Assembly: GCF_016862435.1 (NCBI RefSeq)
Contig: NZ_BOMY01000022.1
Coordinates: 62,001-126,000 of the forward strand
Direction of reading: 5' to 3'
DNA length: 64,000 nt
Source: Paractinoplanes tereljensis
GTDB lineage: Bacteria > Actinomycetota > Actinomycetes > Mycobacteriales > Micromonosporaceae
Shown here: one piece after another, positions 1,420-18,654 of the stretch
Position numbering within the stretch: position 1 is the stretch's first letter
Layout of the letters: every line of letters begins with the position of its first letter
Translations under genes and position numbers: made by a program
The notes under the pieces: generated by a model
The model's database searches: none
Told to the model about the DNA's origin: nothing
The model's input: the letters and a program-made list of their open reading frames with translations, nothing else

Positions 1420-1518
1420 GTCAATAGGGTGAGCACCTGGGCACCGCCTTTCCAGCACGTTGTCGGCAACCCGTCCGCACGAGATCCGCCACATCCCCCA
1501 AAGTGCTGAACCGATGAC

Positions 1519-1542
1519 TTTCCGCCGTGGGCACGACGGAAA
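1519..1542 (-). terminator. 10-bp hairpin after the anchored protein gene
   Basis: On the minus strand TTTCCGTCGT-GCCC-ACGGCGGAAA forms a full 10-bp RNA stem with one G-U pair and a 4-base loop, 7 bases after the stop codon at 1549. This is the position expected for a transcription terminator; the T tract is missing, as is common in actinobacteria. Confidence 0.6.
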
Positions 1543-1548
1543 TGTCGG

Positions 1549-2565: not shown

Positions 2566-2710
2566 GCGATCGTCTCCTTGGTACGGCCGGGCACCCCCTG
2601 CGCCCGGCTGCGTATGGCGTCGATGGTCAATACGGAGCTACACCGGTCGACGGTTCGATTCCCGGGGAGACGATCGGGAAGCCGTCCAAAGATGGGCTTA
2701 AATCTCACCC

Positions 2711-2739
2711 TTGTCATTAACCGCTTTCGCCGCAACAAT
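2711..2739 (+). promoter_or_regulatory. Sigma-70-like promoter for the AbfB-domain gene
   Basis: TTGTCA at 2711-2716 and AACAAT at 2734-2739 are 17 bases apart in a locally AT-rich stretch of the 230-base divergent region (2566-2795). The same region also holds a 7-bp hairpin GCCGGGC/GCCCGGC at 2586-2608, within the leader of the opposite gene. Confidence 0.45.
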
Positions 2740-2795
2740 GCCTTTTCGAGACTTTAAGAGTGCCTTAGGTCGCCGGCCGTAGGAGCGGATGCTGC

Positions 2796-3659: not shown

Positions 3660-3668
3660 GCGCCCGCT

Positions 3669-4679
3669 TTATGCCCCGGCGCTGTCCAGCCGGTCCAGCT
3701 GCTCGCCGGTGAGCTTGACGTCGAGGGCCGGCACCGCGTCCTCGAACTGCTGGATGGTGCGCGGCCCGATCAGCGGCAGCACCCGCGGCGCGGTCTGCTG
3801 CATCAGCCAGGCCAGCACCAGCTGGTTCGGGGTGACGCCGACCTCGGCGGCCACCTCCTCCACCGCCGCGACCCGGGCGTCCGCGTCCGGGCCGGCGTAG
3901 TTCGCCATCATCCAGTGGCCGGTCCGCTTGGCCGCCGAGGCGTAGACGCCCTTCAGGATCGGCGAGTAGGCCACCAGGGTCTGGTCGGCGTGCTCGCGCA
4001 GGTAGTCGAGCTGCTCGGCGCCGACGATGGAGGCCGACTCCGCGCCCGCCTTCGGGCGCAGGTAGCTGTGCTGCTGCTGAACCGCGACCGGCAGCGGCCA
4101 GCCGTTGCGCTCGCACAGCCCGCGGATCCGCTCGAGCCGCCAGGTGCGCACGTTGGACCAGCCCAGGTAGCGAATCTTGCCGGCCGACACCAGCCCGGCC
4201 AGCGCCTCCAGGGTCTCCTCGAGCGGCGTGCCCAGGTCGTCGACGTGGATGTAGTAGAGGTCGACGTGGTCGGTGCCGAGCCGGCGCAGGCTGCCGTCGA
4301 GCGCGTCGCGCAGCGTCTTGGCGCCCGCCCCGGCGAAGGTGCGCCGGGCCAGTTCCCAGTCCGGGGTGCCGTCGGCGGCCCACAGGTCGGGCGAGTAGTG
4401 CGGCAGCGCGCTGCCCTTGGTGGCGAGGAAGACCTGCTCGCGCCGGTTGCCGGCGCGCATCCAGCGGCCGAGGAGTTCCTCGCTCTCCCCGCCGCGGCTG
4501 TCCCGGGTGGCCCACCACTCGTAGCAGTCGGCGGTGTCGAGGAACGATCCGCCGATCTCGCGGTAGCGGTCAAGAATTCGGATCGAGTCCGCCTCGCTGG
4601 TGGCGTTGCCCATCTGCATCGCGCCCAGAGCGAGCCGGCTCACCTGCGTACCCGTACGGCCAAGTTCGATCGTCTGCAT
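3669..4679 (-). CDS. Aldo/keto reductase
   Basis: 336-residue NADPH-dependent oxidoreductase with the family's catalytic tetrad visible: Asp48 and Tyr53 (FLDTADCYEWW), Lys88 (FLATKG) and His145 (YYIHVDD). The N-terminal MQTIELGRTGTQVSRLALGA and the C-terminal PLIGPRTIQQFEDAVPAL are typical of the group that reduces small aldehydes and ketones. Cytosolic, about normal length. GAAAGG lies upstream of the ATG. It is divergent from a TetR-type regulator, and its promoter (4708-4738) has an unusually long 19-base spacer filled with a palindrome, a layout typical of MerR-family control. The true substrate cannot be read from the sequence. Confidence 0.9.
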   Translation of the reverse strand: MQTIELGRTGTQVSRLALGAMQMGNATSEADSIRILDRYREIGGSFLDTADCYEWWATRDSRGGESEELLGRWMRAGNRREQVFLATKGSALPHYSPDLWAADGTPDWELARRTFAGAGAKTLRDALDGSLRRLGTDHVDLYYIHVDDLGTPLEETLEALAGLVSAGKIRYLGWSNVRTWRLERIRGLCERNGWPLPVAVQQQHSYLRPKAGAESASIVGAEQLDYLREHADQTLVAYSPILKGVYASAAKRTGHWMMANYAGPDADARVAAVEEVAAEVGVTPNQLVLAWLMQQTAPRVLPLIGPRTIQQFEDAVPALDVKLTGEQLDRLDSAGA

Positions 4680-4707
4680 GCCAAGTCCGCCTTTCAGTAA
4701 TAGGGCG

Positions 4708-4738
4708 AAGCTATTTGCTGGAGCGCACTCCAGGTCAA
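4708..4738 (-). promoter_or_regulatory. Aldo/keto reductase promoter with 19-base spacer and palindrome
   Basis: On the minus strand TTGACC (4733-4738) and TAGCTT (4708-4713) are separated by 19 bases. The spacer overlaps a perfect palindrome CTGGAG-TGCG-CTCCAG (4718-4733). Overlong spacers with a central dyad are the hallmark of promoters activated by MerR-family proteins. The adjacent TetR gene starts 23 bases away on the other strand. Confidence 0.6.
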
Positions 4739-4760
4739 GGACGGCGGTTAGGATCCGGGC

Positions 4761-5291
4761 ATGCCGGCACGGGAGCGTTTATTGGTGGTGGCGCTCGACC
4801 TGTTCGCCGAGCACGGCGTCAGCGGCACGTCGCCGCAGATGATCGCCGACCGCCTGGGCGTCACGAAGGCGGCGGTCCACAGCGAGTTCCCGACCATGGA
4901 CGACCTCGCCCTGGCGGTGATCGCCCCGGCCCTGGATCGGCTGGGCGAAGTCGCCGACGAGGCGGAGTCCCAGCGCGGCCACGCGGCCCGCGTCGAATCC
5001 GTCCTGGCCGGCGTGGTCCAGCTGGTGGTCGACTACCGCAAGATGGCGGCGACGCTCGGCTTCGACCCGGTGGTGGTCCGGCTGGTCCGGGCCCACCCGG
5101 CCCTGCGCGACCTGCAGCGCATCCGCCGCCTGCTGGGCGGCTTCGCCCCCGACCCGGGCAGCCGGGTGCGGATGGCGGTCATCGCCGGCGGCCTGATGAT
5201 GGCGGGCGCCGACCCGGCCGTGGCCGGCCTCGACAACGAGGACTTCCACGACCACCTGCTGGCCGCCGGCCGCCGCATCCTCCGAGGCTGA
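4761..5291 (+). CDS. TetR-family transcriptional regulator
   Basis: 176 residues. The N-terminal 45 residues form a helix-turn-helix of the TetR type: ALDLFAEHGVSGTSPQMIADRLGVTKAAVHSEFPTMDDL. The remainder is a helical ligand-binding domain. A TAGGAT hexamer at 4749-4754 is exactly six bases before the ATG and there is no ribosome binding site, so the mRNA is probably leaderless. Divergent from the aldo/keto reductase gene, which is its obvious target, although that promoter looks MerR-like; the palindrome at 4718-4733 could equally be the TetR operator. Confidence 0.88.
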   Translation: MPARERLLVVALDLFAEHGVSGTSPQMIADRLGVTKAAVHSEFPTMDDLALAVIAPALDRLGEVADEAESQRGHAARVESVLAGVVQLVVDYRKMAATLGFDPVVVRLVRAHPALRDLQRIRRLLGGFAPDPGSRVRMAVIAGGLMMAGADPAVAGLDNEDFHDHLLAAGRRILRG

Positions 5292-5391
5292 GCCTCAGCA
5301 GTCGTCGCCGATGTCGAGGGTGTGGTCGGCCGGACCGTCCGACGTGGACCCTCGGCGGCGGCCGGGCGGCCGGGATCCGAAGGTCAGAGCT

Positions 5392-5541
5392 TCACCAGTC
5401 GTCGTCGACGACGTGCGGATCCACGCCGTGCAGGTAGTCGTCATGGGTCTCGTACACGTAACCCTGGGCATCTTCGTCGGGGTCGGTGACCTCGGTCCCG
5501 TCCGGGAACTCGACCACCGTCTCCTCTTCCGGGTCGGACAT
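5392..5541 (-). CDS. Small acidic protein, 49 residues
   Basis: Begins MSDPEEETVVEFPDGTEVTD and ends ...HVVDDDW. About a third of its residues are Asp or Glu. The ATG at 5539-5541 is chosen because GGGAGG sits eight bases upstream; longer versions starting further up would cover the ribosome binding site. It lies between a TetR gene and the dynamin pair, pointing the other way from both. I recognise no family. Between its stop and the TetR gene (5292-5391) I see nothing convincing. Confidence 0.55.
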   Translation of the reverse strand: MSDPEEETVVEFPDGTEVTDPDEDAQGYVYETHDDYLHGVDPHVVDDDW

Positions 5542-5618
5542 GTCACCAGCCTCCCGGATCCTCGGTGACACCGGAAGGGGTGATTCACTCTGCGTGCTCA
5601 CCATCGAATGATGGACGC

Positions 5619-7502
5619 ATGCGGGACTTCGACGCCGTACGCGAGCAGATTTTGACGTTGTTTCCGGACCTGAGGGCGGCGGCCGCCCGGCGCGGCGCGA
5701 CCGCGACCGGGGTGCGCCTCGAGGCCGCCCGCGACCGGGTCGTCGACGGCCGGCTCACCGTGGTGGTCTGCGGAGAGTTCAAACGCGGTAAGTCCAGCCT
5801 GCTCAACGCGCTGCTCGACGAGTGGCGGGCGCCCCAGCTGTTCCCCGAGGCCGGCGAGATCGCCACCAACACGGTCACCACGGTCTCGTACGGCCCGGCC
5901 GAGGAGATCACCGCCCTGGTCGAGACCGACGCCGGCACCGAAACCGTGCCGATCGGCCGCGCGGAGATCGCCGGTTACGTGACCGAGGGTGCCAACCCGC
6001 GCAACGGCCGCCGTGCCCGCTTGATCACCGTCGAGACCCCCAACCCGAAGCTCGCGTCCGGGCTGACCCTGGTCGACACTCCCGGTGTCGGCGGCGTCTA
6101 CCAGGACCACACCGCCGCGACCATGGCGTTCCTGCCCAGCGCCGACGCGGTGGTGTTCGTCGCCGACGCCACCCAGCCGCTGCTGGAGAGCGAGTTGCGG
6201 TTCCTCCGGCGGGCCGCGCGGGCGGTCGCGGCCGGTGACTCGCTCGAAGCCCTGCAATTCGTGCTCACCAAGACCGACACCGGCGACTTCACGGCGATCC
6301 TGGCCAACACCCGCGACAAGATCGCCGCAGCGCTGGACCGCCCGGCCGATCAGGTGGTGATCACTCCGGTCTCGGCCCACGCGAAACGCGACTACCTCGA
6401 GGGCGGCGACGAGGAGGATCTGGAGCTGAGCAACTTCGGGGAGTTCGAGGCACGGCTGTGGACCGCGCTGGCCCGCTGGCGGATCCGGCGGCTCCTCGGC
6501 GGCGCGCTGCTGGAGCTGGAGAGCTCGGCGCGGGCACTGCTGGTGCCGATCACCGAGGAGATCGAGGCGCTCGCCGACGACACCAAGCAGCGCGTCGCCG
6601 ATCTGACCGCGCAGGCCGAGCAGCGGCAGCACCGCCTCACCGAGCTGCGCCAGGACTCGGCCTCGTGGCGGCGCGACCTGGCCGCGCAGACCGGCGACCT
6701 CGGCCGCAGCCTGACCGCGACCGGCCAGCGCCGGCTCGACGAGGTGTGGCACGTCTTCATCACCGAATACCTCCGCGACGACGCGTACCTGTTCCACCCC
6801 GATCGACTGGTCGGCCAGCTCACCGCGGACGCCGCCCAGGTCATCGGCGAGCTCAACGAGCAGGCTGCCCGCGCCGCCGCACAGCTGCTCGGCGACTTCA
6901 CCGACCGGCACGGCCTCGACCTCGGCTCGGCCCGGCTCGGCCGGCTGCCCGCCCCCGACGTGCCGCCCCTGCGGTTCAGCGGCGACCTGTACCAGGAGTA
7001 CCGCAGCGACCCGGTCAAACGGCGGCTGCGCGACGTCAGCCTCGGCGGCGGCATCGGAAGTACCGTCGGCGGTTTCCTCGGCACGCTGCTCGTCCCGATC
7101 CCCGGCGTCGGAACGGTCCTCGGGGCGGCGCTCGGCGGGCTGCTCGGCGGCACCGCCGGCTACCGCAGCAGCCGGCAGGACGAGGGCCGGGCCGAACGGC
7201 AGGGGCGGCGGCAGAGCCTGCAACAGGAGCTGCGCCCGGTCGAGGCCGAGCAGCGCCGGCACGTCGCGGGCGCCGTGCCGGACCTGGTCCGCGAGTTCAG
7301 CCGGGCGATGACCGCCGAGCTCGACAGCCGCCTCGCCCGAGAACAGGAAACCCTCCGGGACCGGTTGTCCCGGCTGGCCGCGGCCCGCGAGGCCACCGAG
7401 GAGAAGGCCAGGCTGCGGACGGCCGAACTGACTGCCGAACAGGCACCACTGATCGCCGTACGGGAGCGGATCGCCGAGCTGACCAGCGTCATCGACGGAT
7501 GA
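5619..7502 (+). CDS. Dynamin-like GTPase 1
   Basis: 627-residue large GTPase of the bacterial dynamin type, expected to bind and remodel membranes. G1 is GEFKRGKSS at residues 52-60, G3 is DTPG at 153-156, and G4 is TKTD near 218. A long helical stalk with coiled-coil stretches follows, and at about 475-515 there is a glycine-zipper hydrophobic segment (GGGIGSTVGGFLGTLL...) likely to insert in membrane, as in the mycobacterial IniA-type proteins. The start ATGCGG follows AATGAT by six bases, consistent with a weak leaderless promoter. Its stop overlaps the start of the second dynamin gene by four bases (ATGA), so the two are co-translated and probably form a heteromer. Confidence 0.85.
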   Translation: MRDFDAVREQILTLFPDLRAAAARRGATATGVRLEAARDRVVDGRLTVVVCGEFKRGKSSLLNALLDEWRAPQLFPEAGEIATNTVTTVSYGPAEEITALVETDAGTETVPIGRAEIAGYVTEGANPRNGRRARLITVETPNPKLASGLTLVDTPGVGGVYQDHTAATMAFLPSADAVVFVADATQPLLESELRFLRRAARAVAAGDSLEALQFVLTKTDTGDFTAILANTRDKIAAALDRPADQVVITPVSAHAKRDYLEGGDEEDLELSNFGEFEARLWTALARWRIRRLLGGALLELESSARALLVPITEEIEALADDTKQRVADLTAQAEQRQHRLTELRQDSASWRRDLAAQTGDLGRSLTATGQRRLDEVWHVFITEYLRDDAYLFHPDRLVGQLTADAAQVIGELNEQAARAAAQLLGDFTDRHGLDLGSARLGRLPAPDVPPLRFSGDLYQEYRSDPVKRRLRDVSLGGGIGSTVGGFLGTLLVPIPGVGTVLGAALGGLLGGTAGYRSSRQDEGRAERQGRRQSLQQELRPVEAEQRRHVAGAVPDLVREFSRAMTAELDSRLAREQETLRDRLSRLAAAREATEEKARLRTAELTAEQAPLIAVRERIAELTSVIDG

Positions 7503-9007
7503 GCGGCGACCTGCGAGCACGCGCGGTCGCGGCCTTCGAGGCCGCCCGGGCGACGGTAGCGCCCAGGCCGGTGCACGACGCCCTCACCGAGCATCTGACC
7601 CGCCTGACCGAGCCGATGCGGGTCGCGCTGGTCGGGCGGGTCAGCTCCGGCAAGTCGACCCTCGCGAACGCGCTGCTCGGCGGCGATCTGGCGCCCACCG
7701 GCGTGGAGGAACTCACCTTCAACGTCAACTGGCTCAGCCACGGCCCGCGCCGCGAACTGACCGTGCACTTCACCGACGGACGGCCGCCCTCGCGGCGCGA
7801 TCCGGACGAACTCACCGCGCTGACCGTACGGGCCCGCGACGGCGACCAGGAGCACCAGCGGCTCCTGCGGGCAATCGACTATCTGCGGGTCACCGATCCC
7901 AACCCGTACCTGCGGTCCTTCGACCTGATCGACACCCCCGGCCTGGACTCGGTGTTCCACGCCGACTCGCAGAACACGCTGCGGTTTCTCGGCCGCACCG
8001 GCGACGACGTGCGGGCCGAGTCGGCCGCGCACGCCCGCAAGGCCGATGCCCTGATCGTGGTGTTCGCCCGCGGCCTGGCCGCCAACGAGGACGAGATGCT
8101 GTCGGATTTCGTCGGGCCCGACTTCGGTGGCGGCGGGCCGATCACCACGGTGGCGGCGCTGACCAAGGTGGAGCTGAGCTGGCCGCAGGCCGCCGATCCG
8201 ATGGCTGAGGGCCGGCGACTCGCCGAGCGGGTCATGAGCGCGCCCGGCGCCCGCCGCCTGCTGTTCGACGTGCGCCCGGTGGCCAGCCTGGTCGGCTCGG
8301 CCGCGGCCACGTTCACCACCGACGAGTACGCCGATCTGGTCGCCCTGGCCGAGGTGGAGCCGGACATCCTGGAGAAACGGGTGCGCCGCGGCCCGTACTT
8401 CGCCACCCGCGACTACGACGACCTGCCGCTCGACGCCGGCCGCCGGGCCGCCCTGCTGCGCCGCTTCGGCCAGTACGGCATCGTGCTGGCCTGCTCGCTG
8501 CTGCGCGACGGCATCGACACTGAGGAGCTACTGCGCACCGAGCTGACCGCCCGCAGCGGCATGACCGGCCTGAAGCGCCTGCTGGTGGACCACTTCGGTA
8601 ACCGGGGCGATCTGATCAAGCTGCGCGGCGCCCTCGACCAGGCCTACCAGCTGGGTTCGACGCTCGACCTGCGCGACACCATGTCCCCGCTGCTCACTCT
8701 GGAGCAGGACGAACACGCCTTCGCCGAACTGCGCGTACTACGCCACTACTACGACGGCGGACTGACCTTCACCGCCGAGGACGCCGCCGACCTGCTCCGG
8801 GTAACCGGCGAATACGGCACCACCGCCGCCGACCGTCTCGGCCTGCCATCCGGCACGCCGCCGGACCGGCTGGCCGAGGCAGCCCGCGAACGTCTGGCCG
8901 AGTGGGCCGAACGCGACCTCGACCCGTCGTACGCCGGCCGCAGCCGCCGCGCGGTGCAGGTGGTGCGGCGCAGCTACGAACGTCTGGCCACGCAACTGCG
9001 GGCCTAG
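7499..9007 (+). CDS. Dynamin-like GTPase 2
   Basis: 502 residues, partner of the preceding gene. G1 is GRVSSGKST at 46-54, G3 DTPG at 145-148, and the G4 position reads TKVE (222-225), with Glu in place of the usual Asp, which may lower guanine specificity. The C-terminal half is helical and lacks the strong hydrophobic segment of partner 1, so this protein may be the soluble subunit, as in IniA/IniC-type pairs. Start ATG overlaps the upstream stop. Its stop overlaps the convergent Hsp70-WD40 stop through a shared CTAG, which makes the two transcription units end to end. Confidence 0.85.
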   Translation: MSGDLRARAVAAFEAARATVAPRPVHDALTEHLTRLTEPMRVALVGRVSSGKSTLANALLGGDLAPTGVEELTFNVNWLSHGPRRELTVHFTDGRPPSRRDPDELTALTVRARDGDQEHQRLLRAIDYLRVTDPNPYLRSFDLIDTPGLDSVFHADSQNTLRFLGRTGDDVRAESAAHARKADALIVVFARGLAANEDEMLSDFVGPDFGGGGPITTVAALTKVELSWPQAADPMAEGRRLAERVMSAPGARRLLFDVRPVASLVGSAAATFTTDEYADLVALAEVEPDILEKRVRRGPYFATRDYDDLPLDAGRRAALLRRFGQYGIVLACSLLRDGIDTEELLRTELTARSGMTGLKRLLVDHFGNRGDLIKLRGALDQAYQLGSTLDLRDTMSPLLTLEQDEHAFAELRVLRHYYDGGLTFTAEDAADLLRVTGEYGTTAADRLGLPSGTPPDRLAEAARERLAEWAERDLDPSYAGRSRRAVQVVRRSYERLATQLRA

Positions 9008-11334
9008 GTTTCGTCCACCGGTACGCCGATCGTCCACATCGCGACGTGATTGCCATAGGCCGCGGCGATGTACTCGCCTTCCGGGCTGAAGTCGAGTGAC
9101 CTCACCGTGGCGTCGACACGCGTCTCGGCAAGCTCGTCGAGACGACCCCGGGATTGCGCATCGAAGATCCGGATGCTGCGAGCCCAGCCGACGGCGAGGA
9201 ACCTGCCATCCGGGCTGAATACCGGGCATTCCCAGCCGTAGTCGGTACTGTCCAGTGCTAACGCGTTCGCTTCCATCCGAGTGCCGGCGGCCTCCGCATG
9301 CTCAGGGCCGTTGGTCCAGATGTTGAGCGGGTTGTAGCCGGCCGTAGCGAACTGCTGCCCGTCCGGACTGACGGCAACGTCGCCGGCGTTGCCGAAAGTG
9401 CCGAGTTGTTCACCGTTGGCCACATCCCACAGATGGACCTCATTACTACCGGTGACAAGAACGCTCGTGTCCGGGCTGAACGCGACGGTGTAGACGTTGG
9501 GACGCTTGATCTTCGCTGGCCGACCGCGCAGTCGTTCGGTCAGGCTGCGGGAGCCCTTCCGGCGGAAGTCCTCGCGAGGGTACTCGTGAGTCATCGTTCG
9601 GACTCGTGCGCCGGTGGCCACTTCCCAGATGACCGCCGCGCCGTCCGAGGCGGTGACCATCCAGCGGCCGTCGGAACTGAAGTTCACATCATCAACCGTG
9701 GCCGAGTGTTCCAGAGACAGCATCCGGTCTCCCGTTGCGAGGTCCCACACCTGCAGGAACTCCCGGTCGGCGGCCGCCAGCCGCCGACCGTCCGGGCTGA
9801 ATCGCACGGGATCGAGGAGATATCCGGTGCTCCCCGACAGCGTCAGCAGGAGGCGACGTTCGGCGTGATCCCACACCCGCACGCCCCGCCCACCGCCGGC
9901 CAGCCACCGGCCGTCCGGGCTGAATGCGACGGAACGCGCGTCCCCGACATCGAACACCCGATTGATGGTGCCGGACCGGTGCAGCCGAATCGGCCGGTTC
10001 GCCGAGGTGACCGTGACCGGCCAGTCCGTCGCGGACAGCAGCGCCCCAGCCGGGATGATCCAATCCCGTACGGTGCCGGCCGCCGACCCCGCCGTGAGGG
10101 TCCAGAGCAGGTCATCGCTGTCCCTGGCGACGGCCATGGGCGCGCCCGCCGCGTACTTCTCGCCGGCATCAATCAGGATCCGCGACAGGGAGCTGCCGGC
10201 CGGCGGATGCCACCGCAGCCGGGACCGGCCGGGCGCCTCCAGCATGCCAAGGAGAACACGGCCGGTGTCCCCTTCGGCGTGGGCGGCGGCGCCCTGGACG
10301 ACGGCGAGGTCCGGGTCCTCAGGTCGGCGGATCGGCCGGCCAAGCTCGCGGGCCACGGTGTCGGCGACGACCGGCATCCGGGACGTTCCGCCGACCAGCA
10401 GCACCGCGGTCACCGCGTCGGCGGCGACGGAGCAGCCGCGCAGCAGTTCCCGGCAGCAGTCCACCGTGCGGGCGAGCACCGGCGCGACCAGCGCGGTCAG
10501 CTCGGCGCGCTCGACCCGGGACGGCGGTGCCAGGTGCGACACGAAGTCCTCGACCTCGGTGACGTCGCTGAGCTGGTGTTTGATGCCCCGGGCGAAGTCG
10601 GCGAACTGCAGTCCCAGGCGCATCCGGACTGCGCGAGCCGCACCGGCCGGCACGGCGAGTGCCTCCGCCAGCTCGGCGCCCCCGCTGTCGCGGACGTGCC
10701 CGATCAGCAGGGCGTCGATGTCACGGCCACCGCAGTCATCCAGGGCCGCGTGCCCGAGCACCTCGTTACCGCTGTCGCCGCCGAACCGCACCAGCGCGGC
10801 GTCGAACGTCCCGCCTCCGAAGTCGTACACCAGCACGGTGTCCCCGGCCCCGAAGCCCTCGCCGGAAAGCGGTGCCAGCGCCGCCGCAACCGGCTCGGCC
10901 AGCAATTCCACGTCGTCGAATCCGGCCGCCTCCGCCGCCGCGATCATCAATGCTCGCCGCGGATCCCCGGGCCGGTAGGAGGCCGGGACGGTCAGCAGCG
11001 CCCGCCGCACCGGTTCTCCGGCCTGCTCGCGGAACGCCGCGAGCAGGGCCGTTACCAGCGCCGAGACCGGGTAGTCCCGGTCGCCGAGCGGAATCGGCGC
11101 CTGCTGGCCCAGATCTCGCTTGAACTCGGCCCGGTAGCTCGCCGGGTCGGTGCGCTTGCGCCGCTCCGCCGTCGTGCCGACCAGCAGTCGGTCCCCGTCG
11201 GCGCAGACGGCCGACGGCCACGACCATGACCCGCTGCCCGGCTCCTTGATCAGCCGCACCCGGCCGTCGGAGGAGACCAGCGCGGCCGACGACGTCGAAG
11301 TGCCAAAGTCGATGACCAGTACGGCTTCGCCCAC
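9004..11334 (-). CDS. Hsp70 ATPase domain fused to WD40 beta-propeller, copy 1
   Basis: 776 residues. The N-terminal ~350 residues are an Hsp70/actin-fold ATPase: phosphate-1 VIDFGTSTSS, LLTVPASYRPGDPRR, ...LAEPVAAAL, phosphate-2 VLVYDFGGGTFDAAL, and adenosine motif LLVGGTSRMPVVAD. The peptide-binding domain of a true DnaK is absent. Instead, after a linker of about 100 residues, there are WD40 repeats with many FSPDGRWLA- and VWD-type signatures up to the C-terminus. The GTG at 11332-11334 is preferred because TAGCGT lies seven bases upstream and no Shine-Dalgarno exists. It follows copy 2 on the same strand with about 50 bases between. Function unknown; ATP-driven recognition through the propeller is an inference. 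Confidence 0.85.
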   Translation of the reverse strand: MGEAVLVIDFGTSTSSAALVSSDGRVRLIKEPGSGSWSWPSAVCADGDRLLVGTTAERRKRTDPASYRAEFKRDLGQQAPIPLGDRDYPVSALVTALLAAFREQAGEPVRRALLTVPASYRPGDPRRALMIAAAEAAGFDDVELLAEPVAAALAPLSGEGFGAGDTVLVYDFGGGTFDAALVRFGGDSGNEVLGHAALDDCGGRDIDALLIGHVRDSGGAELAEALAVPAGAARAVRMRLGLQFADFARGIKHQLSDVTEVEDFVSHLAPPSRVERAELTALVAPVLARTVDCCRELLRGCSVAADAVTAVLLVGGTSRMPVVADTVARELGRPIRRPEDPDLAVVQGAAAHAEGDTGRVLLGMLEAPGRSRLRWHPPAGSSLSRILIDAGEKYAAGAPMAVARDSDDLLWTLTAGSAAGTVRDWIIPAGALLSATDWPVTVTSANRPIRLHRSGTINRVFDVGDARSVAFSPDGRWLAGGGRGVRVWDHAERRLLLTLSGSTGYLLDPVRFSPDGRRLAAADREFLQVWDLATGDRMLSLEHSATVDDVNFSSDGRWMVTASDGAAVIWEVATGARVRTMTHEYPREDFRRKGSRSLTERLRGRPAKIKRPNVYTVAFSPDTSVLVTGSNEVHLWDVANGEQLGTFGNAGDVAVSPDGQQFATAGYNPLNIWTNGPEHAEAAGTRMEANALALDSTDYGWECPVFSPDGRFLAVGWARSIRIFDAQSRGRLDELAETRVDATVRSLDFSPEGEYIAAAYGNHVAMWTIGVPVDET

Positions 11335-11341
11335 GCGGGAA

Positions 11342-11376
11342 ACGCTAATCGGCGGGAACATCCGACCCGATCCCCC
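11342..11376 (-). promoter_or_regulatory. Leaderless promoter of Hsp70-WD40 copy 1 with conserved upstream element
   Basis: On the minus strand GGGGGATCGGG (11366-11376), then 18 bases, then TAGCGT (11342-11347), then 7 bases to the GTG. The identical 11-mer at the identical distance is found before copy 2, whereas the 18 bases between differ, so the element is likely under selection. Confidence 0.6.
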
Positions 11377-11382
11377 GTGCGG

Positions 11383-13635
11383 TTACTCCGGCTCGTCGAC
11401 CGGCTCGGCCACCTCGTAGACCCGGATCCAGTTGTCGCAGGCCGCCGCGAGAAAGCGGCCGTCCGGACTGAACGCGACCGACGTCACCGTGGTCTTGGTC
11501 CTGATGGTGCCCAATTCGCGCAGCGTTCCGCGAGACCGGGCGTCGTAGATCCGGACGTCACTGCCCTTACCCGCGGCGACCAGCCGGCCGTCGGGGCTGA
11601 AGGCTGGGCGTACCCAGCTCGTCTCGGTAGGGGAATACGGGTCTTTGGCCTTTACCGACGCGACCTCTTGGGCTTCGCCGTCAGCCGTCACGATCGTCAA
11701 CGACGAGCTGTTCGCTAGGGCGATGTGCGACGCCTCCGGGCTGAGCGCGAACCAGCCAGCGCGGTCCACGAGATACTCCTTGTTTCCGGTCGCCAGGTCC
11801 CACACGTGAGTGTGCTCGAGGGCGGAGGTGATCAGCTGATTCCCGTCCGCGCTGAACTCGACGGCGTACAAAGTGAGCTCGTGCGGAAATGTGCGAGCAC
11901 GGACGCCGGTGGCAGCTTCCCAAAGAACAGCGACGCCGTCTTTGGCGACTCCGGCTAGCCAGCGGCCGTCCGGGCTGAAGGCCACGTCGTTGATCACATC
12001 AGGGTGGTCGAGGGCGTACAGCTGCTCGCCCGTCCGGGCGTCGCACACGATCACGCCCGGTCCGCCGGCGACGGCCACCTGACGCCCGTCCGGGCCGACG
12101 GCCACCGACCAGTACATGTTTCCCTGGAAGTTCCGCTGCAGATCCCAGACGGTGTCGCCGCTCTCCCAGTCCCATACCCGCGCCCAGGAAACGGCCGCGG
12201 CCACCAAGTGGCGACCATCCGGGCTGAAGGCCACGCGACGTCCGGTCTCCGGTTCGATGTTGAAGATCCGCGCAAAGGCTGGTACTTTGAATCGAAGCCG
12301 AGGTCCCGCCGAGGTGACATCCACCGACCAATCCAACGGCGGCAGGTGCGCACCCACCGGAACCGTCCACTCCCGGATCGTTCCGGCCACCGGCGGCGCC
12401 GTGAGGGTCCAGAGGCGGTCGTCGCCGTCACGCACGACGGCCAGCGACTCGCCCGCCGCGTACCCCTCGCCGGCTCCGGTCAGGACGCGGGCGAGCCGGC
12501 TCACGGCCGGGCCCTTCCAGCGCAACCGGTCGCGACCCGGCGTTGCCAGCATCGCTCGGAGGACCCGCGTGCCGCCCTGCCCGGCGTCGGCGGCGGCGCC
12601 CTGCACCACGGCGAGGTCCGGGTCCTCGGGGCGGCGGATCGGCCGGCCCAGCTCACGAGCCACGGTATCGGCGACGACCGGCATCCGGGACGTTCCGCCG
12701 ACCAGCAGCACCGCGGCGAGCTGCGCCGGCACGACCCCACACTCGCGCAGCAGCCGGTGGCAGCAGTCCAGCGTGCGGGCCAGCACCGGCGCGACCAACG
12801 CGGTCAGCTCGGACCGGTCGACCCGCGACGGCGGCGCCAGGTGCGACACGAAGTCCTCGACCTCGTCGACCTCGCTGAGCTGATGCTTGATCACCCGCGC
12901 GAAGTCCGCGAACTGCAGGCCCAGCCGCATCCGGACGGCCCGCGGCGCATCGGCCGGGACAGCGAGCGCCTCGGCCAGGGAATCGCCGCCGCTGTCCCGG
13001 ACATGCTCGATCAGCAGGGCGTCGATGTCACGCCCACCGCAGTCATCGAGCGCCGCGTGCCCGAGTACCTCACGGCCGGCGCCGGTGAACCGGACCAGCG
13101 CGGCGTCGAACGTCCCGCCCCCGAAGTCGTAGACCAGGACTGTGTCGCCGATCCCGAAACCGTCACCGGAAAGGGGCCCGAGCGCCGCCGCAACCGGCTC
13201 GGCCAGCAGTTCCACGTCGTCGAACCCGGCCGCCTCGCCCGCCGCGATCATCAGCGCCCGCCGCGGATCCCCGGGCCGGTAGGAGGCCGGAACCGTCAGC
13301 AGCGCCCGCCGCACCGGCTCACCGGCCTGCTCCCGCAGAGCCGTCAAGAGGGCAGCGACCAGCTCTTCCACCCGGTAGTCCCGGTCGCCGAGCGGAATCG
13401 GCGCCTGCTGGCCCAGATCTCGCTTGAACTCGGCCCGATAACCGGCCGGATCGGTGCGCTTGCGCCGCTCCGCCGTCGTACCGACCAGCAGCCGGTCCCC
13501 GTCCCGGCAGACCGCCGACGGCCACGACCACAAGCCGCTGCCCGGTTCCTTGACCAGCCGTACCCGGTCGCCGGTTACCAGCGCGGCCGACGACGTCGAC
13601 GTGCCAAAGTCGATGACCATCACGGCTTCGCCCAC
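11383..13635 (-). CDS. Hsp70 ATPase domain fused to WD40 beta-propeller, copy 2
   Basis: 750 residues and a clear paralog of the downstream gene. The ATPase half is nearly the same by eye (for example EFKRDLGQQAPIPLGDRDYR, VYDFGGGTFDAALVRF and LLVGGTSRMP), whereas the WD40 half, from about residue 440, differs strongly in length and in blade sequence while keeping AFSPDGR motifs. The GTG at 13633-13635 is chosen since a TAGCGT hexamer is seven bases upstream; the 33 codons above it would overlap this promoter. Arrangement suggests tandem duplication followed by divergence of the propeller, the part that would contact a partner or target. Confidence 0.85.
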   Translation of the reverse strand: MGEAVMVIDFGTSTSSAALVTGDRVRLVKEPGSGLWSWPSAVCRDGDRLLVGTTAERRKRTDPAGYRAEFKRDLGQQAPIPLGDRDYRVEELVAALLTALREQAGEPVRRALLTVPASYRPGDPRRALMIAAGEAAGFDDVELLAEPVAAALGPLSGDGFGIGDTVLVYDFGGGTFDAALVRFTGAGREVLGHAALDDCGGRDIDALLIEHVRDSGGDSLAEALAVPADAPRAVRMRLGLQFADFARVIKHQLSEVDEVEDFVSHLAPPSRVDRSELTALVAPVLARTLDCCHRLLRECGVVPAQLAAVLLVGGTSRMPVVADTVARELGRPIRRPEDPDLAVVQGAAADAGQGGTRVLRAMLATPGRDRLRWKGPAVSRLARVLTGAGEGYAAGESLAVVRDGDDRLWTLTAPPVAGTIREWTVPVGAHLPPLDWSVDVTSAGPRLRFKVPAFARIFNIEPETGRRVAFSPDGRHLVAAAVSWARVWDWESGDTVWDLQRNFQGNMYWSVAVGPDGRQVAVAGGPGVIVCDARTGEQLYALDHPDVINDVAFSPDGRWLAGVAKDGVAVLWEAATGVRARTFPHELTLYAVEFSADGNQLITSALEHTHVWDLATGNKEYLVDRAGWFALSPEASHIALANSSSLTIVTADGEAQEVASVKAKDPYSPTETSWVRPAFSPDGRLVAAGKGSDVRIYDARSRGTLRELGTIRTKTTVTSVAFSPDGRFLAAACDNWIRVYEVAEPVDEPE

Positions 13636-13642
13636 AACGGAA

Positions 13643-13677
13643 ACGCTAGCGGCCACGCCCTGCTGCCCCGATCCCCC
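13643..13677 (-). promoter_or_regulatory. Leaderless promoter of Hsp70-WD40 copy 2 with conserved upstream element
   Basis: GGGGGATCGGG (13667-13677), 18 bases, TAGCGT (13643-13648), 7 bases, GTG on the minus strand: the same arrangement as copy 1. Confidence 0.6.
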
Positions 13678-13683
13678 AAATGC

Positions 13684-13721
13684 ACGATCCCCGGCCACGC
13701 CGAAGCGTGACCGGGGATCGT
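13684..13721 (-). terminator. Nested hairpin after the DHA2 exporter gene
   Basis: ACGATCCCCGG and CCGGGGATCGT (11 bp, perfect) enclose a second stem CACGC-CGAA-GCGTG. It lies 20 bases past the exporter stop and before the Hsp70-WD40 promoter, as expected for a strong terminator without a T tract. Confidence 0.75.
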
Positions 13722-13741
13722 CGATCGGGATCAAAACACCG

Positions 13742-15232
13742 TCAGTGGGCCATGGCCTTCGGGGCGTCCGGGTCGACGTCGAGCGGGCCGGTGCGGAACA
13801 GGACCGCCGAGACGACCGCGGCCAGCAGGAAGAAGCCGCACGACCACCAGAACACGGTGTGGTAGCTGGACAGCTGCGCCTGAGCCTGGACCAGCGCCGA
13901 CGGCGTCTTGCCGACCATGTAGTTCGTCGCGGCGGACGCGGCGAACGAGCTCAGCAGGGCGGTACCGATCGAGCCGCCGATCTGCTGCATGGTGTTGACC
14001 ATCGCCGAGGCGACGCCCGCGTCGGCGTGCTCGACGCCGCTGGTGGCGGCGTTCTGCGTCGGGGCGAAGACCAGGCCGAGGCCGAGGCCGATGACCAGCA
14101 GGCCGGGCAGCACGCCGGAGGCGTACGTCGAGTCCAGGTCGAGGCGGGTCATGAAGGCCATGCCCCCGGCCGCGATCAGGGCGCCGACCGGAACCAGCGG
14201 GCGCGGACCGACCTTCGGGGTGAGGATCGAGCCGGCCGTGGTGGCGGACAGCATGATCGCGCCGAGCATCGGCAGGAACGCCAGGCCGGTCTGGATCGGG
14301 GTGAAGCTGAGGAACTGGGTCAGGTAGTAGGTCAGGAACAGGAAGATGCCGAACATGCCGGCGCCGGCGATACCGATCGAGGCGTACGAGCCACCCCGGT
14401 TGCGGTCGAGCACGACGCGCAGCGGCAGCAGCGGGTGCGGCACCCGCAGCTCGATGAAGACGAAGGCGATCAGCACGACCACACCGACGATGATCGGGAT
14501 CAGGGTGGCGGCGGCGGTCCAGCCGTCGGTCTCCGCCTTGCCGAGGCCGTACACCAGGCCGACGAGACCGACGATGGCGGCGACCGCACCCGGGATGTCG
14601 ATCCGGTTGGGGTTGATGATCTTCTCGTCCTGCAGCTTGCGCAGGCCGCCGACGACGGCGATGGCCGCGATGATCAGGTTGACGTAGAGGCACCAGCGCC
14701 ACGACGCGTACTCGGTCAGCACGCCGCCGAGCAGCAGGCCGACGGCGCCGCCGGCGCCGGAGATGGCGCCGAAGATGCCGAACGCCTTGCCACGGTCGGC
14801 CGGCTCGGTGAAGGTGGTGGACAGCAGCGACAGGGCCGCGGGAGCGAGCGCGGCACCGAACGCACCCTGCAGGGCACGCGCGATGATCAGCATCTCGAGG
14901 CCGTTGGCGGCGCCGCCGAGTGCGGACGCCAGGGCGAAACCGATGAGGCCGATGAGGAACATGCGCTTACGGCCGAAGTAATCGGAGAGCCGGCCGCCGA
15001 GCAGCAGCAGGCTGCCGAAGGCGAGGGCGTAACCGGTGACGACCCACTGCCGGCTGGCGTCGGAGAAGCCGAGGTCGGCCTGGGCGGTGGGCAACGCGAT
15101 GTTCACGATGGTGGCGTCCAGCACCACCATGAGCTGGGCCATGGCCAGTACTACCAGGGACCACCAGCGGCCGCTGCCGCCGGGCGGGGCGGTGGCCGAG
15201 GGCGGTGGGGTCAGTTCGGTTGCGGTACTCAA
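13742..15232 (-). CDS. MFS drug exporter, DHA2 (EmrB/QacA) family
   Basis: About 496 residues with 14 predicted membrane helices. The first helix carries the family motif QLMVVLDATIVNIALPTAQ (motif D1), and the loop between helices 2 and 3 reads GGRLSDYFGRKRMF (motif A). Motif C on helix 5 appears as GAISGAGGAVGLLLGG. These proteins expel lipophilic drugs or metabolites by proton antiport. Start is uncertain: TTG at 15232 has GAAAGG eight bases upstream, TTG at 15238 has it too close. No regulator gene is adjacent. It stands alone between two hairpin terminators. Confidence 0.9.
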   Translation of the reverse strand: MSTATELTPPPSATAPPGGSGRWWSLVVLAMAQLMVVLDATIVNIALPTAQADLGFSDASRQWVVTGYALAFGSLLLLGGRLSDYFGRKRMFLIGLIGFALASALGGAANGLEMLIIARALQGAFGAALAPAALSLLSTTFTEPADRGKAFGIFGAISGAGGAVGLLLGGVLTEYASWRWCLYVNLIIAAIAVVGGLRKLQDEKIINPNRIDIPGAVAAIVGLVGLVYGLGKAETDGWTAAATLIPIIVGVVVLIAFVFIELRVPHPLLPLRVVLDRNRGGSYASIGIAGAGMFGIFLFLTYYLTQFLSFTPIQTGLAFLPMLGAIMLSATTAGSILTPKVGPRPLVPVGALIAAGGMAFMTRLDLDSTYASGVLPGLLVIGLGLGLVFAPTQNAATSGVEHADAGVASAMVNTMQQIGGSIGTALLSSFAASAATNYMVGKTPSALVQAQAQLSSYHTVFWWSCGFFLLAAVVSAVLFRTGPLDVDPDAPKAMAH

Positions 15233-15309
15233 GACCAACGCCTTTCACGAGCGGACGGGAACAGAGGGCTCTTCCCAGTGGGCTTCGACTCGGCGCCGCA
15301 CAAACTGAA

Positions 15310-15331
15310 GGGGGGCGCTTACGCGCCCCCC
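15310..15331 (-). terminator. Hairpin terminator after the GH3 gene
   Basis: A perfect 9-bp stem GGGGGGCGC/GCGCCCCCC with a 4-base loop. On the minus strand it is followed by TTCAGTTTG. It separates the GH3 operon from the exporter gene. Confidence 0.8.
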
Positions 15332-15344
15332 GATTGCAACTTTC

Positions 15345-17108
15345 TCAGCGCGCGGGCCAGGTCAGCCCATGCCCGTACGGGAAGAGCGGGTGGGCCGTGT
15401 CGTTCGGCACGTCCTCGCGTGCCGCCTCCACCTCGGCCATCGACGACGGCAGTTCGAACGGCAGCGTCCCGGAGGCGGCGGCCCGCCCGAACAGCACGTC
15501 CAGCAGCGCCTCGTCGCTCGCGCCGAACGTGCCGACCAGCCCGGCCACCGTTCCGGCCAGCTGGGTGAGCACGGCCGGGCGGTCGAGCATCACGTCCACC
15601 ACGGTCGGCAGCTTGCCGGACAGGTCCAGCACCGGCGTGATCTCCTCGGCGGTCCAGTCGAGCCGGCCCGCGTGGAAGAACGCCTCGAAACCGGTGGTGC
15701 GGGTGTTGTCGTAGGCGGTGCCACGCCGGACGATCGCCACGTCGGCCTCGGCCGGGTCGGTGACGACCTTGGCGTACCGGGCGGCCACCACCGGGTCGAC
15801 CCCGTCCAGGTAGACGGTGATGCCCTCGGTCAGCGGCAGGGCAGGCGCCTCGAGCACGACCACCGAGCGGTGCTGGGCGTCGAGACCGGCGGCCAGGAAG
15901 GCCGGCGTGCCGATCTTCTCCCGGGCGGCCGCGGCGTCGACGTACCGGCGGTCGTCGAACAGGCCCAGCCGGAACTTGTCGCGCAGGATCCGCCGGGCCG
16001 ACCGGTCGATCCGCTCCTCGGTGACCCGGCCCCGCTCGACCAGCTCCACCACCAGCTCCGGGGCGAACTCGCCGCCGAGCTGGTCGGCGCCCGCGTCGAT
16101 GATCCGCTGCACCCGGGTGAGCCGGTCCAGGTTCTCCACGCCCCAGGCGCGGGCCGGCATCGGCGAGCCCATGATCTCGGCGTCGGTGACCAGGCCCCAG
16201 TCGGTGCAGACCACGCCGTCGAAGCCGTAGTGGCCGCGCAGCAGCCCCTCGATGATCCCCTTGTTGAAACCGAAACCCACTTCGTCATACGAAGTGCCGA
16301 CCGGCATGCCGTAGTAGGGCATGACCTGGGCGACCCCGGCGGCGAAGGCAGCCTCGAACGGCTTGAGGTGATCGTCCCAGCGGCCGCCCGGGTAGACCTG
16401 CTCCCGCCCGTACGGGAAGTGGGCGTCTTCTCCGTCTTTCTGGGGTCCGGCGCCCGGGAAGTGCTTCACCATCGCGACGACGCTGTCCGGCCCGAGCTGG
16501 TCACCCTGCAGGCCCTGCACGTAGGCGGCGACCAGCTCCGCGACCAGCGAAGGATCGGAGCCGAGGGTCCCGCTGGTGCGCGCCCAGCGGGGCTCGGTGG
16601 CCAGGTCGGCCATCGGGTGCAGGGCGACCCGGATGCCGGCGGCCAGGTACTCCTGGCGGACCGTGTCGGCGAATGCCCGTACCAGCTCAGGGTCTTTGGT
16701 CGCACCCAGGCCGATCGGCTCCGGCCAGGCGGAGAATCCGCCGGCCGCGGCCGAGGTCGCGGGGTTGTCTACGGTGCCGTGCCGGGGGTCGGTGGAGATC
16801 GTCATCGGGATGCCGAGGTGGTTGCCGGCGGCCAGCTCCTGGATCCGGTTGTGCCACTCGGCGATCGTCGCGGGCGGCACCGGCGCCATCGTGAGGATGT
16901 TGACGTGGGTGATCAGCTTCTCCCGGACCAGCCAGTTCGTCGAGGCGAACATGCCACCCTCGGCGTCCGGCTCGTGCAGGGTGCCGTCCGGGTTTACCGC
17001 CACCATGGCGTGGAACATCAGGCCGGCCTTCTCGGCCACGGTCATCCGGGACAACAGGTCGGTGACGCGCTCTTCGATCGGGAGGGCTGCGTTCTCGTAC
17101 GGGTTCAT
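15345..17108 (-). CDS. Glycoside hydrolase family 3, intracellular beta-glucosidase type
   Basis: 587 residues with no signal peptide, so it works in the cytosol. The GH3 N-terminal barrel is plain: STDPRHGTVDNP, MVKHFPGAGPQKDGEDAHFP (the KHF-G element), and the nucleophile Asp303 in VVCTDWGLVTDAEIMG. The second, alpha/beta-sandwich domain follows from about residue 395. It should release a sugar from the non-reducing end of short beta-linked oligosaccharides or glucosides. AAGG lies before the ATG. It is 14 bases downstream of an MFS sugar-type transporter on the same strand, so import and hydrolysis are paired; the divergent ROK protein is the likely repressor. Exact sugar not known. Confidence 0.88.
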   Translation of the reverse strand: MNPYENAALPIEERVTDLLSRMTVAEKAGLMFHAMVAVNPDGTLHEPDAEGGMFASTNWLVREKLITHVNILTMAPVPPATIAEWHNRIQELAAGNHLGIPMTISTDPRHGTVDNPATSAAAGGFSAWPEPIGLGATKDPELVRAFADTVRQEYLAAGIRVALHPMADLATEPRWARTSGTLGSDPSLVAELVAAYVQGLQGDQLGPDSVVAMVKHFPGAGPQKDGEDAHFPYGREQVYPGGRWDDHLKPFEAAFAAGVAQVMPYYGMPVGTSYDEVGFGFNKGIIEGLLRGHYGFDGVVCTDWGLVTDAEIMGSPMPARAWGVENLDRLTRVQRIIDAGADQLGGEFAPELVVELVERGRVTEERIDRSARRILRDKFRLGLFDDRRYVDAAAAREKIGTPAFLAAGLDAQHRSVVVLEAPALPLTEGITVYLDGVDPVVAARYAKVVTDPAEADVAIVRRGTAYDNTRTTGFEAFFHAGRLDWTAEEITPVLDLSGKLPTVVDVMLDRPAVLTQLAGTVAGLVGTFGASDEALLDVLFGRAAASGTLPFELPSSMAEVEAAREDVPNDTAHPLFPYGHGLTWPAR

Positions 17109-17122
17109 GATCTTGACCTTTC

Positions 17123-18415: not shown

Positions 18416-18480
18416 CGCACACCCTCTTCGGCTAATGCGGGCGATCTCTCAGGCTTGTCGGCTCTCGCTCGTTACGACCT

Positions 18481-18508
18481 GATATAGCGAAGGTATCGAG
18501 CGCATTAA
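18481..18508 (-). promoter_or_regulatory. Possible promoter of the MFS-GH3 operon
   Basis: On the minus strand TTAATG (18503-18508) and TATATC (18481-18486) are 16 bases apart. It is the most AT-rich part of the 239-base divergent region (18416-18654). No clean operator dyad for the ROK protein was found there. Confidence 0.35.
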
Positions 18509-18654
18509 CGCGAAACCAGCGGCCGACGGCCTTGAATTGGCCCCTGATTCGCCCTCCCGTAATGCTGATCACGCTACTTTTGCCGGATTCGCTCCATAGG
18601 TTTCTGTGCGACGGCCCGAGTAATGTCTAGTTCAAGCAAAACCCGGAGGTGACC

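What the first reader, a model, noticed from the sequence alone, without database searches (positions are those of the whole stretch)
5619..13635. Coupled dynamin pair facing two Hsp70-WD40 fusion proteins
A heteromeric pair of dynamin-like GTPases (ATGA overlap) ends tail to tail, sharing a CTAG, with two tandem proteins in which the Hsp70 substrate domain is replaced by a WD40 propeller. Dynamin-Hsp70 neighbours are known in actinobacteria around IniA-type genes, but this double set with propellers looks uncommon. It could protect membranes during phage or drug stress, with the propeller as sensor.
Basis: partly seen in the sequence, partly recalled or inferred. Interest (0 to 1): 0.75.

Follow-up and report, generated by a model that had tools for sequence, protein, structure and literature searches.

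The report
Dynamin pair with Hsp70-propeller proteins
This is a small block of four bacterial genes, present or absent as a whole, that pairs two membrane-remodelling dynamin proteins with two unusual Hsp70 proteins carrying a propeller-shaped binding domain instead of the usual chaperone part; similar pairings recur in other actinobacteria, which suggests a little-studied membrane-protection system.

Summary
Confirmed. Window 5619-9007 encodes an IniA-like and an IniC-like dynamin that meet, at a shared CTAG, two tandem Hsp70 proteins (9004-13623, minus strand) without the Hsp70 substrate-binding domain.

The dynamin-Hsp70 link is real: an Hsp70 lies in 42 of 60 family IniC-type stretches of 18-20 kb, against about 2% expected, and in 14 of 17 outside the family. 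Hsp70 and dynamin sequences co-diverge. The propeller differs between loci: WD40, PD40, PQQ, Kelch, NHL. The four genes form one accessory unit: a congener has 163 bp where the window has 8.4 kb. The link is not exclusive: 25 of 31 WD-like Hsp70 loci found from the Hsp70 side had no dynamin in the stretch read.

Most likely the dynamins are a membrane-protecting effector and the Hsp70-propeller proteins their ATP-switched sensors or adaptors. The partnership is well supported; contact, and phage or drug protection, are untested. Dynamin-DnaK neighbours (cyanobacteria) and Hsp70 lacking its peptide-binding domain (GTPase conflict systems) are in print; ten paper searches listed nothing on this actinobacterial module.

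The parts
5619..7502 (+). IniA-like dynamin (Dyn1, P0001, 627 aa)
   Evidence: Dynamin_N 1.7e-21; PDB IniA 6j72 E 8.4e-33 over 18-625; G1 GEFKRGKS, G3 DTPG, G4 TKTD
7077..7145 (+). Hydrophobic glycine-rich stretch of Dyn1 (residues about 487-509), candidate membrane-inserting part
   Evidence: Highest hydropathy 1.78 at residue 491; Gly-zipper_Omp 7.6e-5, below its cut-off, at residues 494-537 of the frame starting at 5565, i.e. about 476-519 of the 627-aa protein
7499..9007 (+). IniC-like dynamin (Dyn2, P0002, 502 aa), ATGA overlap with Dyn1
   Evidence: Dynamin_N 4.6e-14; GTPase-domain hits to BDLP 2j68 5.1e-12 and CjDLP 5owv_C 2.2e-10; highest hydropathy only 1.29
9004..9007 (.). CTAG holding the stop codons of Dyn2 (+) and Hsp70a (-)
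   Evidence: Sequence; Hsp70 and IniC-like gene also end tail to tail, 18 bp overlap to 4 bp apart, at L021, L037, L050 and L209
9004..11361 (-). Hsp70a: Hsp70 ATPase domain - probable biotinyl/HlyD-like domain - WD40 propeller (P0003, 785 aa)
10267..11322 (-). Hsp70a ATPase domain (residues 14-365), checked motifs kept
   Evidence: IDFGT, EFKRDLG, AEPVAAA, DFGGGTFD, VGGTSRMP
9997..10224 (-). Probable barrel-sandwich (biotinyl/lipoyl/HlyD-like) domain (residues 380-455), no lysine at the inferred hairpin tip
   Evidence: Slices of relatives hit Biotin_lipoyl (best 4.3e-4) and HlyD_3 (best 2.3e-4), one of them at its cut-off; the window's own slice hits nothing; the 50 Foldseek rows shown are biotinyl/lipoyl domains or proteins that contain one, best E 5.6e-3, on a low-confidence model
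9007..9966 (-). Hsp70a WD40 propeller (residues 466-785)
   Evidence: WD40 4.4e-27; 5yzv TM by target 0.88
11383..13623 (-). Hsp70b, tandem paralogue of Hsp70a (GTG 13623 or ATG 13620; TTG 13734 also possible)
   Evidence: HSP70 8.9e-39, WD40 3e-24; ATPase 87% and propeller 41% identical to Hsp70a
5292..13686 (.). Accessory unit holding the four genes, absent as a whole from two congeners (outer limits; a 49-aa call at 5392-5541 is taken as spurious)
   Evidence: L195 aligns to window 553-5291 and 13738-15265 with 163 bp between; L196 aligns to 515-5289 and 13687-19640
4785..5291 (+). Conserved left flank, TetR-type regulator (not part of the unit)
   Evidence: TetR_N 8.5e-11; aligned in L195 and L196
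13742..15142 (-). Conserved right flank, MFS transporter (not part of the unit)
   Evidence: MFS_1 1.6e-51; aligned in L195 and L196

Best explanation
The four genes are one accessory module of a wider actinobacterial kind: an IniA/IniC-type heteromeric dynamin pair that remodels or seals the inner membrane, run together with Hsp70 ATPases that lack the substrate domain and carry an exchangeable binding module, here a probable biotinyl/HlyD-like domain plus a WD40 propeller, in two divergent copies. Proposed working: the propeller binds a damage- or invader-linked ligand; binding changes the Hsp70 ATPase state through the small linking domain; the ATPase then recruits, loads or disassembles the dynamin pair at the membrane, where the IniA-like partner inserts its hydrophobic stretch. 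Shown here: gene content, ATPase and GTPase motifs, recurrence of the gene link, co-divergence, propeller swapping, absence of the unit as a block from congeners. Inferred: physical contact, direction of control, ligand, and protection of the membrane.
For: An Hsp70 lies in the fetched stretch of 45 of 77 family IniC loci (42 of 60 of at least 18 kb) and of 18 of 23 outside the family (14 of 17), against 2.2% expected from 507 Hsp70 matches in 454 Mb. Hsp70 and dynamin distances correlate over 66 loci (Mantel r 0.872 with IniC, 0.848 with IniA; 0 of 2000 permutations reach either), and the window's two nearest loci are L035 and L103 for all three genes. Propeller types by Pfam at dynamin loci: WD40 (window, L036, L045, L219, L220), PD40 (L021), PQQ (one gene of L103), Kelch (L037), NHL/Vgb-lyase type (L117, L198). 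The unit is present or absent as a block. The tandem copies keep the ATPase (87%) and diverge in the propeller (41%). IniA mediates membrane fission (PMC6715688, title and passages); DynA delays phage lysis in Bacillus (PMC8844932, abstract and passages).
Against: No direct evidence of contact or function. 18 of 60 family dynamin stretches of at least 18 kb hold no Hsp70, and 25 of 31 WD-like Hsp70 loci found from the Hsp70 side have no dynamin in the stretch read, so neither part strictly needs the other nearby. In the window the two parts are convergent, not one operon. Adjacency could reflect a shared defence or stress island. The Mantel test does not remove the species tree. Propellers are also more divergent than the ATPase in pairs without dynamin (71% against 34% and 43% in two pairs; 76% against 40% in L096/L097; 96% against 76% in L095/L098).
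Confidence: 0.58

Rival explanations
1. The Hsp70-propeller proteins are disassembly factors for the dynamins, recycling dynamin assemblies after use much as Hsc70 removes clathrin coats (recalled analogy); the propeller binds the dynamin itself and senses no stress ligand.
For: ATPase motifs are intact; Hsp70 and dynamins co-diverge; the dynamin next to BDLP1 carries a DnaJ-like domain (PMC6104087, passage).
Against: A propeller that only binds the partner dynamin should not change class from WD40 to Kelch, NHL, PQQ and PD40; and at L021, L037, L117 and L198 the propeller follows a predicted membrane span, which would put it across the membrane from cytoplasmic dynamins.
Confidence: 0.2
2. 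Neighbours without a joint job: Hsp70-WD40 proteins and dynamin pairs are separate stress or conflict modules that collect in the same variable chromosomal spots.
For: 25 of 31 WD-like Hsp70 loci lack a dynamin in the stretch read; in G095 one stands beside a PglX-like methyltransferase; the same spot in congener G198 holds a caspase-like ORF.
Against: Correlated divergence, the same combination in several gene orders including same-strand runs (L035, L036, L045, L112), and linkage outside the family at 14 of 17 loci of at least 18 kb.
Confidence: 0.15
3. A housekeeping function: the module assists septation or hyphal cross-wall formation, like DynA/DynB of Streptomyces, and has no link to stress.
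For: DynA and DynB belong to the Streptomyces sporulation division complex (PMC6104087 and PMC5827413, passages); 52 of 61 family genomes, the window's included, have an IniC-type match.
Against: The window unit is accessory and absent from two congeners at the same site; in a sample of 300 family genomes only 34 had a match to the Hsp70-WD40 query at E 1e-75 or better.
Confidence: 0.07

Closest known systems
IniA/IniC dynamins of the mycobacterial iniBAC operon
   Same: Dyn1 matches IniA over nearly its whole length (6j72, E 8.4e-33); side-by-side gene pair; GTPase motifs
   Different: No IniB-type gene in the unit; two Hsp70-propeller genes instead; accessory in this genus
Cyanobacterial dynamin 'chaperone group' with DnaK-domain genes downstream (PMC5827413, passages read)
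   Same: Dynamin with an Hsp70-type gene next to it
   Different: The passages read name DnaK-domain proteins and no propeller; WD40 and WD-repeat do not occur in the paper's text; different phylum
DO-GTPase GAP1-N2 conflict systems with HSP70 (PMC7159879, passages read)
   Different: P0001 and P0002 hit Dynamin_N and no DO-GTPase model; no GAP1 gene among the four; no propeller on the HSP70 is mentioned in the passages read
LeoA/LeoBC dynamins (PADLOC models)
   Same: P0001 hits LeoA 3.8e-20 and LeoBC 1.6e-16
   Different: Moderate similarity within the dynamin superfamily; no Hsp70 is part of those two models
DnaK/Hsp70 chaperones
   Same: ATPase domain with the checked motifs
   Different: No substrate-binding domain; a probable biotinyl-like domain and a propeller instead

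Membership tests
IniA/IniC-type bacterial dynamin pair | Dynamin_N GTPase domain with G1, G3 and G4 motifs | tested here: met
   (G4 of Dyn2 is TKVE, not TKxD)
IniA/IniC-type bacterial dynamin pair | Full-length similarity to IniA in one partner | tested here: met
   6j72, residues 18-625 of 627, E 8.4e-33
IniA/IniC-type bacterial dynamin pair | Two different dynamins side by side | tested here: met
   ATGA overlap
IniA/IniC-type bacterial dynamin pair | Second partner is an IniC orthologue | tested here: inconclusive
   No solved IniC structure was among the hits and no IniC sequence was compared; both types stand together in 76 of 77 family and 23 of 23 other stretches, by profiles made here
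iniBAC operon | IniB gene with the pair | tested here: not met
   The unit's four genes are all otherwise assigned; no IniB model was searched
Hsp70/DnaK chaperone | ATPase domain with phosphate loops and catalytic residues | tested here: met
   (motif roles recalled)
Hsp70/DnaK chaperone | Substrate-binding domain | tested here: not met
   HSP70 match ends at profile position 373 of 599
DO-GTPase GAP1-N2 conflict system | DO-GTPase domain | tested here: not met
   Dynamin_N is best and no DO-GTPase hit appears up to E 0.001; the models exist, see L255
DO-GTPase GAP1-N2 conflict system | GAP1 protein | tested here: not met
   All four genes are otherwise assigned; whether Pfam holds GAP1 models was not checked
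Biotinyl/lipoyl carrier domain | Barrel-sandwich fold | tested here: inconclusive
   Weak Pfam hits in relatives only; Foldseek best E 5.6e-3 on a model of pLDDT 57.8
Biotinyl/lipoyl carrier domain | Modifiable lysine at the hairpin tip | tested here: not met
   The tip reads SDDLLW in Hsp70a and GDDRLW in Hsp70b; which residues form the tip is inferred
Anti-phage defence system | Protection against phage | not testable with these tools
   Only LeoA/LeoBC model hits of the dynamins

The most novel reading that the evidence does not exclude
Actinomycetota, and perhaps cyanobacteria, carry a general class of membrane-guarding systems in which Hsp70 ATPases without substrate domain act as switchable receptors: interchangeable beta-propellers read the danger signal, inside the cell (WD40, PQQ forms without membrane span) or across the membrane (PD40, Kelch, NHL forms behind a predicted span), and IniA/IniC dynamins are the common effector. 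Tandem copies diversify the propeller as immune receptors diversify their sensor domains.
Probability: 0.35. Interest if true: 0.85.

Novelty: new variant of a known kind. Interest (0 to 1): 0.64.

Why it matters
What switches bacterial dynamins on, and how IniA/IniC sense envelope damage, are to my knowledge open questions. A recurrent genetic partner with an ATPase switch and an exchangeable propeller makes them directly testable: the sensor can be swapped between loci and the dynamin response read out. It would also give the Hsp70 ATPase domain a signalling role without substrate folding. If protection against phage or antibiotics follows, it would add a receptor side to a defence that is discussed in Bacillus as a passive reaction to membrane deformation (PMC8844932, passages).

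Tried and rejected
Chance adjacency: rejected. Filing the Hsp70 proteins as chaperones: rejected, no substrate domain. Filing the unit as a DO-GTPase system: rejected. Repeats at the unit's ends: no exact shared word longer than 8 bases between the two edges, so the mode of mobility is open. G+C content does not set the unit apart (0.727 and 0.706 against 0.708 for the window). Sigma-70 promoter and terminator scan: no promoter-like site and one terminator-like site, not above the shuffles. The genome-contig scan used two generic Hsp70 patterns; most of its 80 loci are Hsp70 genes of unrelated phyla, and only a few actinobacterial ones were useful. The plasmid search with Hsp70a found no record covering 80% of it. 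My first WD profile had absorbed ATPase sequence and was dropped; WD counts afterwards are pattern counts and rough. My gene caller missed Hsp70 genes at L035, L037, L069, L089, L095 and L098, so I switched to all open frames. At L103 only one of four Hsp70 genes has a clear propeller (PQQ_2 1.3e-20); two others have WD40 hits below the cut-off, and the fourth was not scanned.

Limits of the counts. Not fetched are G048:C1:3741626 and G034:C1:2046154 (the latter lies partly in L086); counting two such misses against the link changes nothing (42 of 62). 17 of the 77 stretches are shorter than 18 kb and are counted apart. One search scored at most 17 candidates per genome, so the Hsp70 background is a lower bound; with four times that background 42 of 60 still gives 8e-31. 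One search scored at most 3 candidates per genome. Of its 46 matches one (G121) was not fetched; the other 45 fall in 42 loci. Its query was built from dynamin-linked proteins; hence the separate count of 6 of 38. L219 and L220 came from a dynamin search and say nothing about how often Hsp70-WD40 lacks dynamins.
Full report
What is there. The window lies in a 10.8 Mb genome. Dyn1 resembles mycobacterial IniA over nearly its whole length (E 8.4e-33, residues 18-625). Dyn2 gives only GTPase-domain hits among solved structures; I call it IniC-like from its constant partnership with IniA-like genes. Both keep G1 and G3; G4 is TKTD in Dyn1 and TKVE in Dyn2. Dyn1 has a hydrophobic glycine-rich stretch (maximum hydropathy 1.78), Dyn2 nothing above 1.29.

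The Hsp70 proteins. Both have an Hsp70 ATPase domain with the checked motifs, lack the substrate domain and end in a WD40 propeller. The fold model of Hsp70a has mean pLDDT 79.9 but pTM 0.55, so the placement of domains is not to be read; by domain it matches DnaK ATPase structures and a prokaryotic WD40 structure. Between the two lies a conserved stretch of about 75 residues. Of nine slices typed from the window and relatives, six hit Biotin_lipoyl (E 4.3e-4 to 0.19) and four HlyD_3 (2.3e-4 to 0.11), only one at its cut-off; the slice of Hsp70a hits nothing. A low-confidence model of the Hsp70a slice (pLDDT 57.8) gives biotinyl or lipoyl domains, or proteins containing one, as the Foldseek rows shown, none below E 5.6e-3. 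No lysine lies at the inferred hairpin tip, so if it is such a domain it is probably not a carrier. Two short relatives (L114, L238) end right after this domain, which supports its boundary.

One accessory block. In congener G250 the flanks align to window 553-5291 and 13738-15265 with 163 bp between them, against 8446 bp in the window. In congener G198 the alignments stop at 5289 and start again at 13687, with 1904 bp between, where a caspase-like ORF lies (PF00656, 3.4e-9). In G176 the region is rearranged. So the four genes form one presence/absence unit. No long repeats were found at its edges and its G+C is ordinary. Whether the window's line gained it or the others lost it is not settled.

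Link to Hsp70 from the dynamin side. A Dyn2 search found matches in 52 of 61 family genomes, the window's included. Of 77 fetched family loci (of 79 outside the window's genome) 45 hold an Hsp70 by my profile, 42 of the 60 that are at least 18 kb long. In a sample of 148 genomes of the class, 23 had an IniC-type match at E 1e-30 (the window's genome and G003 among them); of the 23 such loci outside the family, all fetched, 18 hold an Hsp70 (14 of 17 of at least 18 kb). Expected by Hsp70 density in the family: 2.2% per 19.9 kb. Three further loci, in Frankiaceae, Acidimicrobiaceae and Acidimicrobiia genome bins (L117, L122, L165), which came in through an Hsp70 search, also have the pair. In the window's own genome, L021 and L023 have an Hsp70 with the pair and L022 has none.

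Link to dynamins from the Hsp70 side. A search of 300 family genomes with four Hsp70-WD40 proteins found matches at E 1e-75 in 34. Of the 42 loci read, 10 hold a dynamin; leaving out the loci used to build the query and the near copy L052, 6 of 38, against 0.4% expected (P about 7e-9). Among loci with WD-like repeats it is 6 of 31 (window, L035, L036, L045, L052, L103). By clade the picture splits: the window's clade (16 rows) and the L036/L045/L112 clade include dynamin-linked members, whereas the stand-alone Hsp70-WD40 clade (L100, L104-L106, L108-L110, with L102 and L107 nearby) has none in the stretches read. The tandem Hsp70 pairs of L238-L250, L253, L254, L111 and L114 have none either. 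This suggests that WD40 was joined to Hsp70 in more than one lineage and that dynamin linkage belongs to some of them; several of the deep branches are weakly supported.

What varies. Pfam at dynamin-linked Hsp70s gives WD40 (window, L036, L045; outside the family L219 with two copies, and L220), PD40 (L021, a second locus in the window's own genome), PQQ (one gene of L103), Kelch (L037) and NHL or Vgb-lyase propellers (L117, L198). L035 and L052 have WD-type repeats by sequence, not scanned with Pfam. The PD40, Kelch, NHL and Vgb forms lie behind a predicted membrane span; the WD40 forms and the L103 proteins have no span. Others end in a proline-rich tail, with or without a span, or in regions without a Pfam match. 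Of 82 Hsp70 rows at dynamin loci, 41 have a predicted span in the C-terminal part and 41 do not (hydropathy threshold 1.9). Hsp70 and the IniC-like gene end tail to tail (18 bp overlap to 4 bp apart) in five loci: window, L021, L037, L050, L209. L103, in the same genus as the window, has four Hsp70 genes with long C-terminal parts around an IniC/IniA pair.

Co-divergence. Over 66 loci the Hsp70 ATPase distances follow those of IniC (r 0.872) and IniA (r 0.848), with 0 of 2000 permutations as high; in 46 of 66 the nearest locus is the same for Hsp70 and IniC. The test does not remove shared species history. The window's two nearest loci are L035 and L103 for all three genes, and each has at least one Hsp70 with a propeller.

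Sensor divergence. Hsp70a and Hsp70b are 87% identical in the ATPase domain (dS 0.39, dN 0.086) but 41% in the propeller (dS 1.10, dN 0.58). The different dS means either that the ATPase domains are kept alike by gene conversion or that a propeller was exchanged; it is not proof of positive selection. Comparisons (ATPase against C-terminal part): three L103 copies 76-79% against 33-37%; L036/L052 94% against 95%; L219/L220 93% against 90%; L095/L098 96% against 76%; L096/L097 76% against 40%; two stand-alone pairs 71% against 34% and 43%. So fast propellers are common in these proteins, also without dynamins, but 87 against 41 is the widest gap seen here.

Known or not. Dynamin-DnaK neighbours are described in cyanobacteria (PMC5827413, passages), and HSP70 without the peptide-binding domain beside GTPases is described in conflict systems of actinobacteria and firmicutes (PMC7159879, passages). 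The IniA paper, the IniR paper and the DynA phage paper do not contain the term Hsp70. Searches of an open-access library listed no paper whose title or abstract start is about Hsp70-propeller proteins with IniA/IniC dynamins; long lists were seen only in part, PMC7203096 (which holds all terms) was not opened, and subscription papers and preprints are not covered. On an Anabaena plasmid a dynamin pair whose second member is 40% identical to Dyn2 lies about 6.6 kb downstream of an Hsp70 gene, with a DO-GTPase gene between.

Verdict. I put 0.58 on a joint membrane-protecting module with the Hsp70-propeller proteins as sensor or adaptor, and rate it a new variant of a known kind.

Noticed in passing
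L196:5965-6744 (G198, same genus): A short caspase-like ORF (PF00656, 3.4e-9 over residues 7-75) sits where the window has the four-gene unit, so this is a variable spot.
   Followed up: partly
L098:8587-10890 and 10855-13353: An Hsp70-WD40 gene of the window's clade, without dynamin nearby, is convergent with a PglX-like methyltransferase gene (PADLOC 2e-220), a hint of a defence island.
   Followed up: partly
L238-L250, L253, L254, L111, L114: A recurrent tandem of two Hsp70-type genes, one longer and one shorter (in L114 and L238 the shorter ends right after the biotinyl-like domain), with no dynamin in the stretch read.
   Followed up: no
L051, L054, L056, L058, L061, L071, L091: Short dynamin-linked Hsp70s share a C-terminal motif of the form PPPRPPVxITPLxLP, a candidate docking motif.
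   Followed up: no
L024:5797-11638 (own genome, C48): The dnaK-type gene is head-to-head with two large ORFs; the first hits the dynamin profile weakly (31 bits) and Dynamin_N at E 2.5e-4.
   Followed up: no
L035:1472-6759: The Hsp70-WD40 frame in G057 seems to shift near its 3' end, and a 665-aa ORF between it and the dynamins is a very weak Hsp70 match (20.0 bits, just under the cut-off).
   Followed up: no
L255 (Anabaena sp. 90 plasmid pANA01): Hsp70, a DO-GTPase, a C39 peptidase and a dynamin pair lie on one strand of a plasmid; the second dynamin is 40% identical to Dyn2, close for another phylum.
   Followed up: partly
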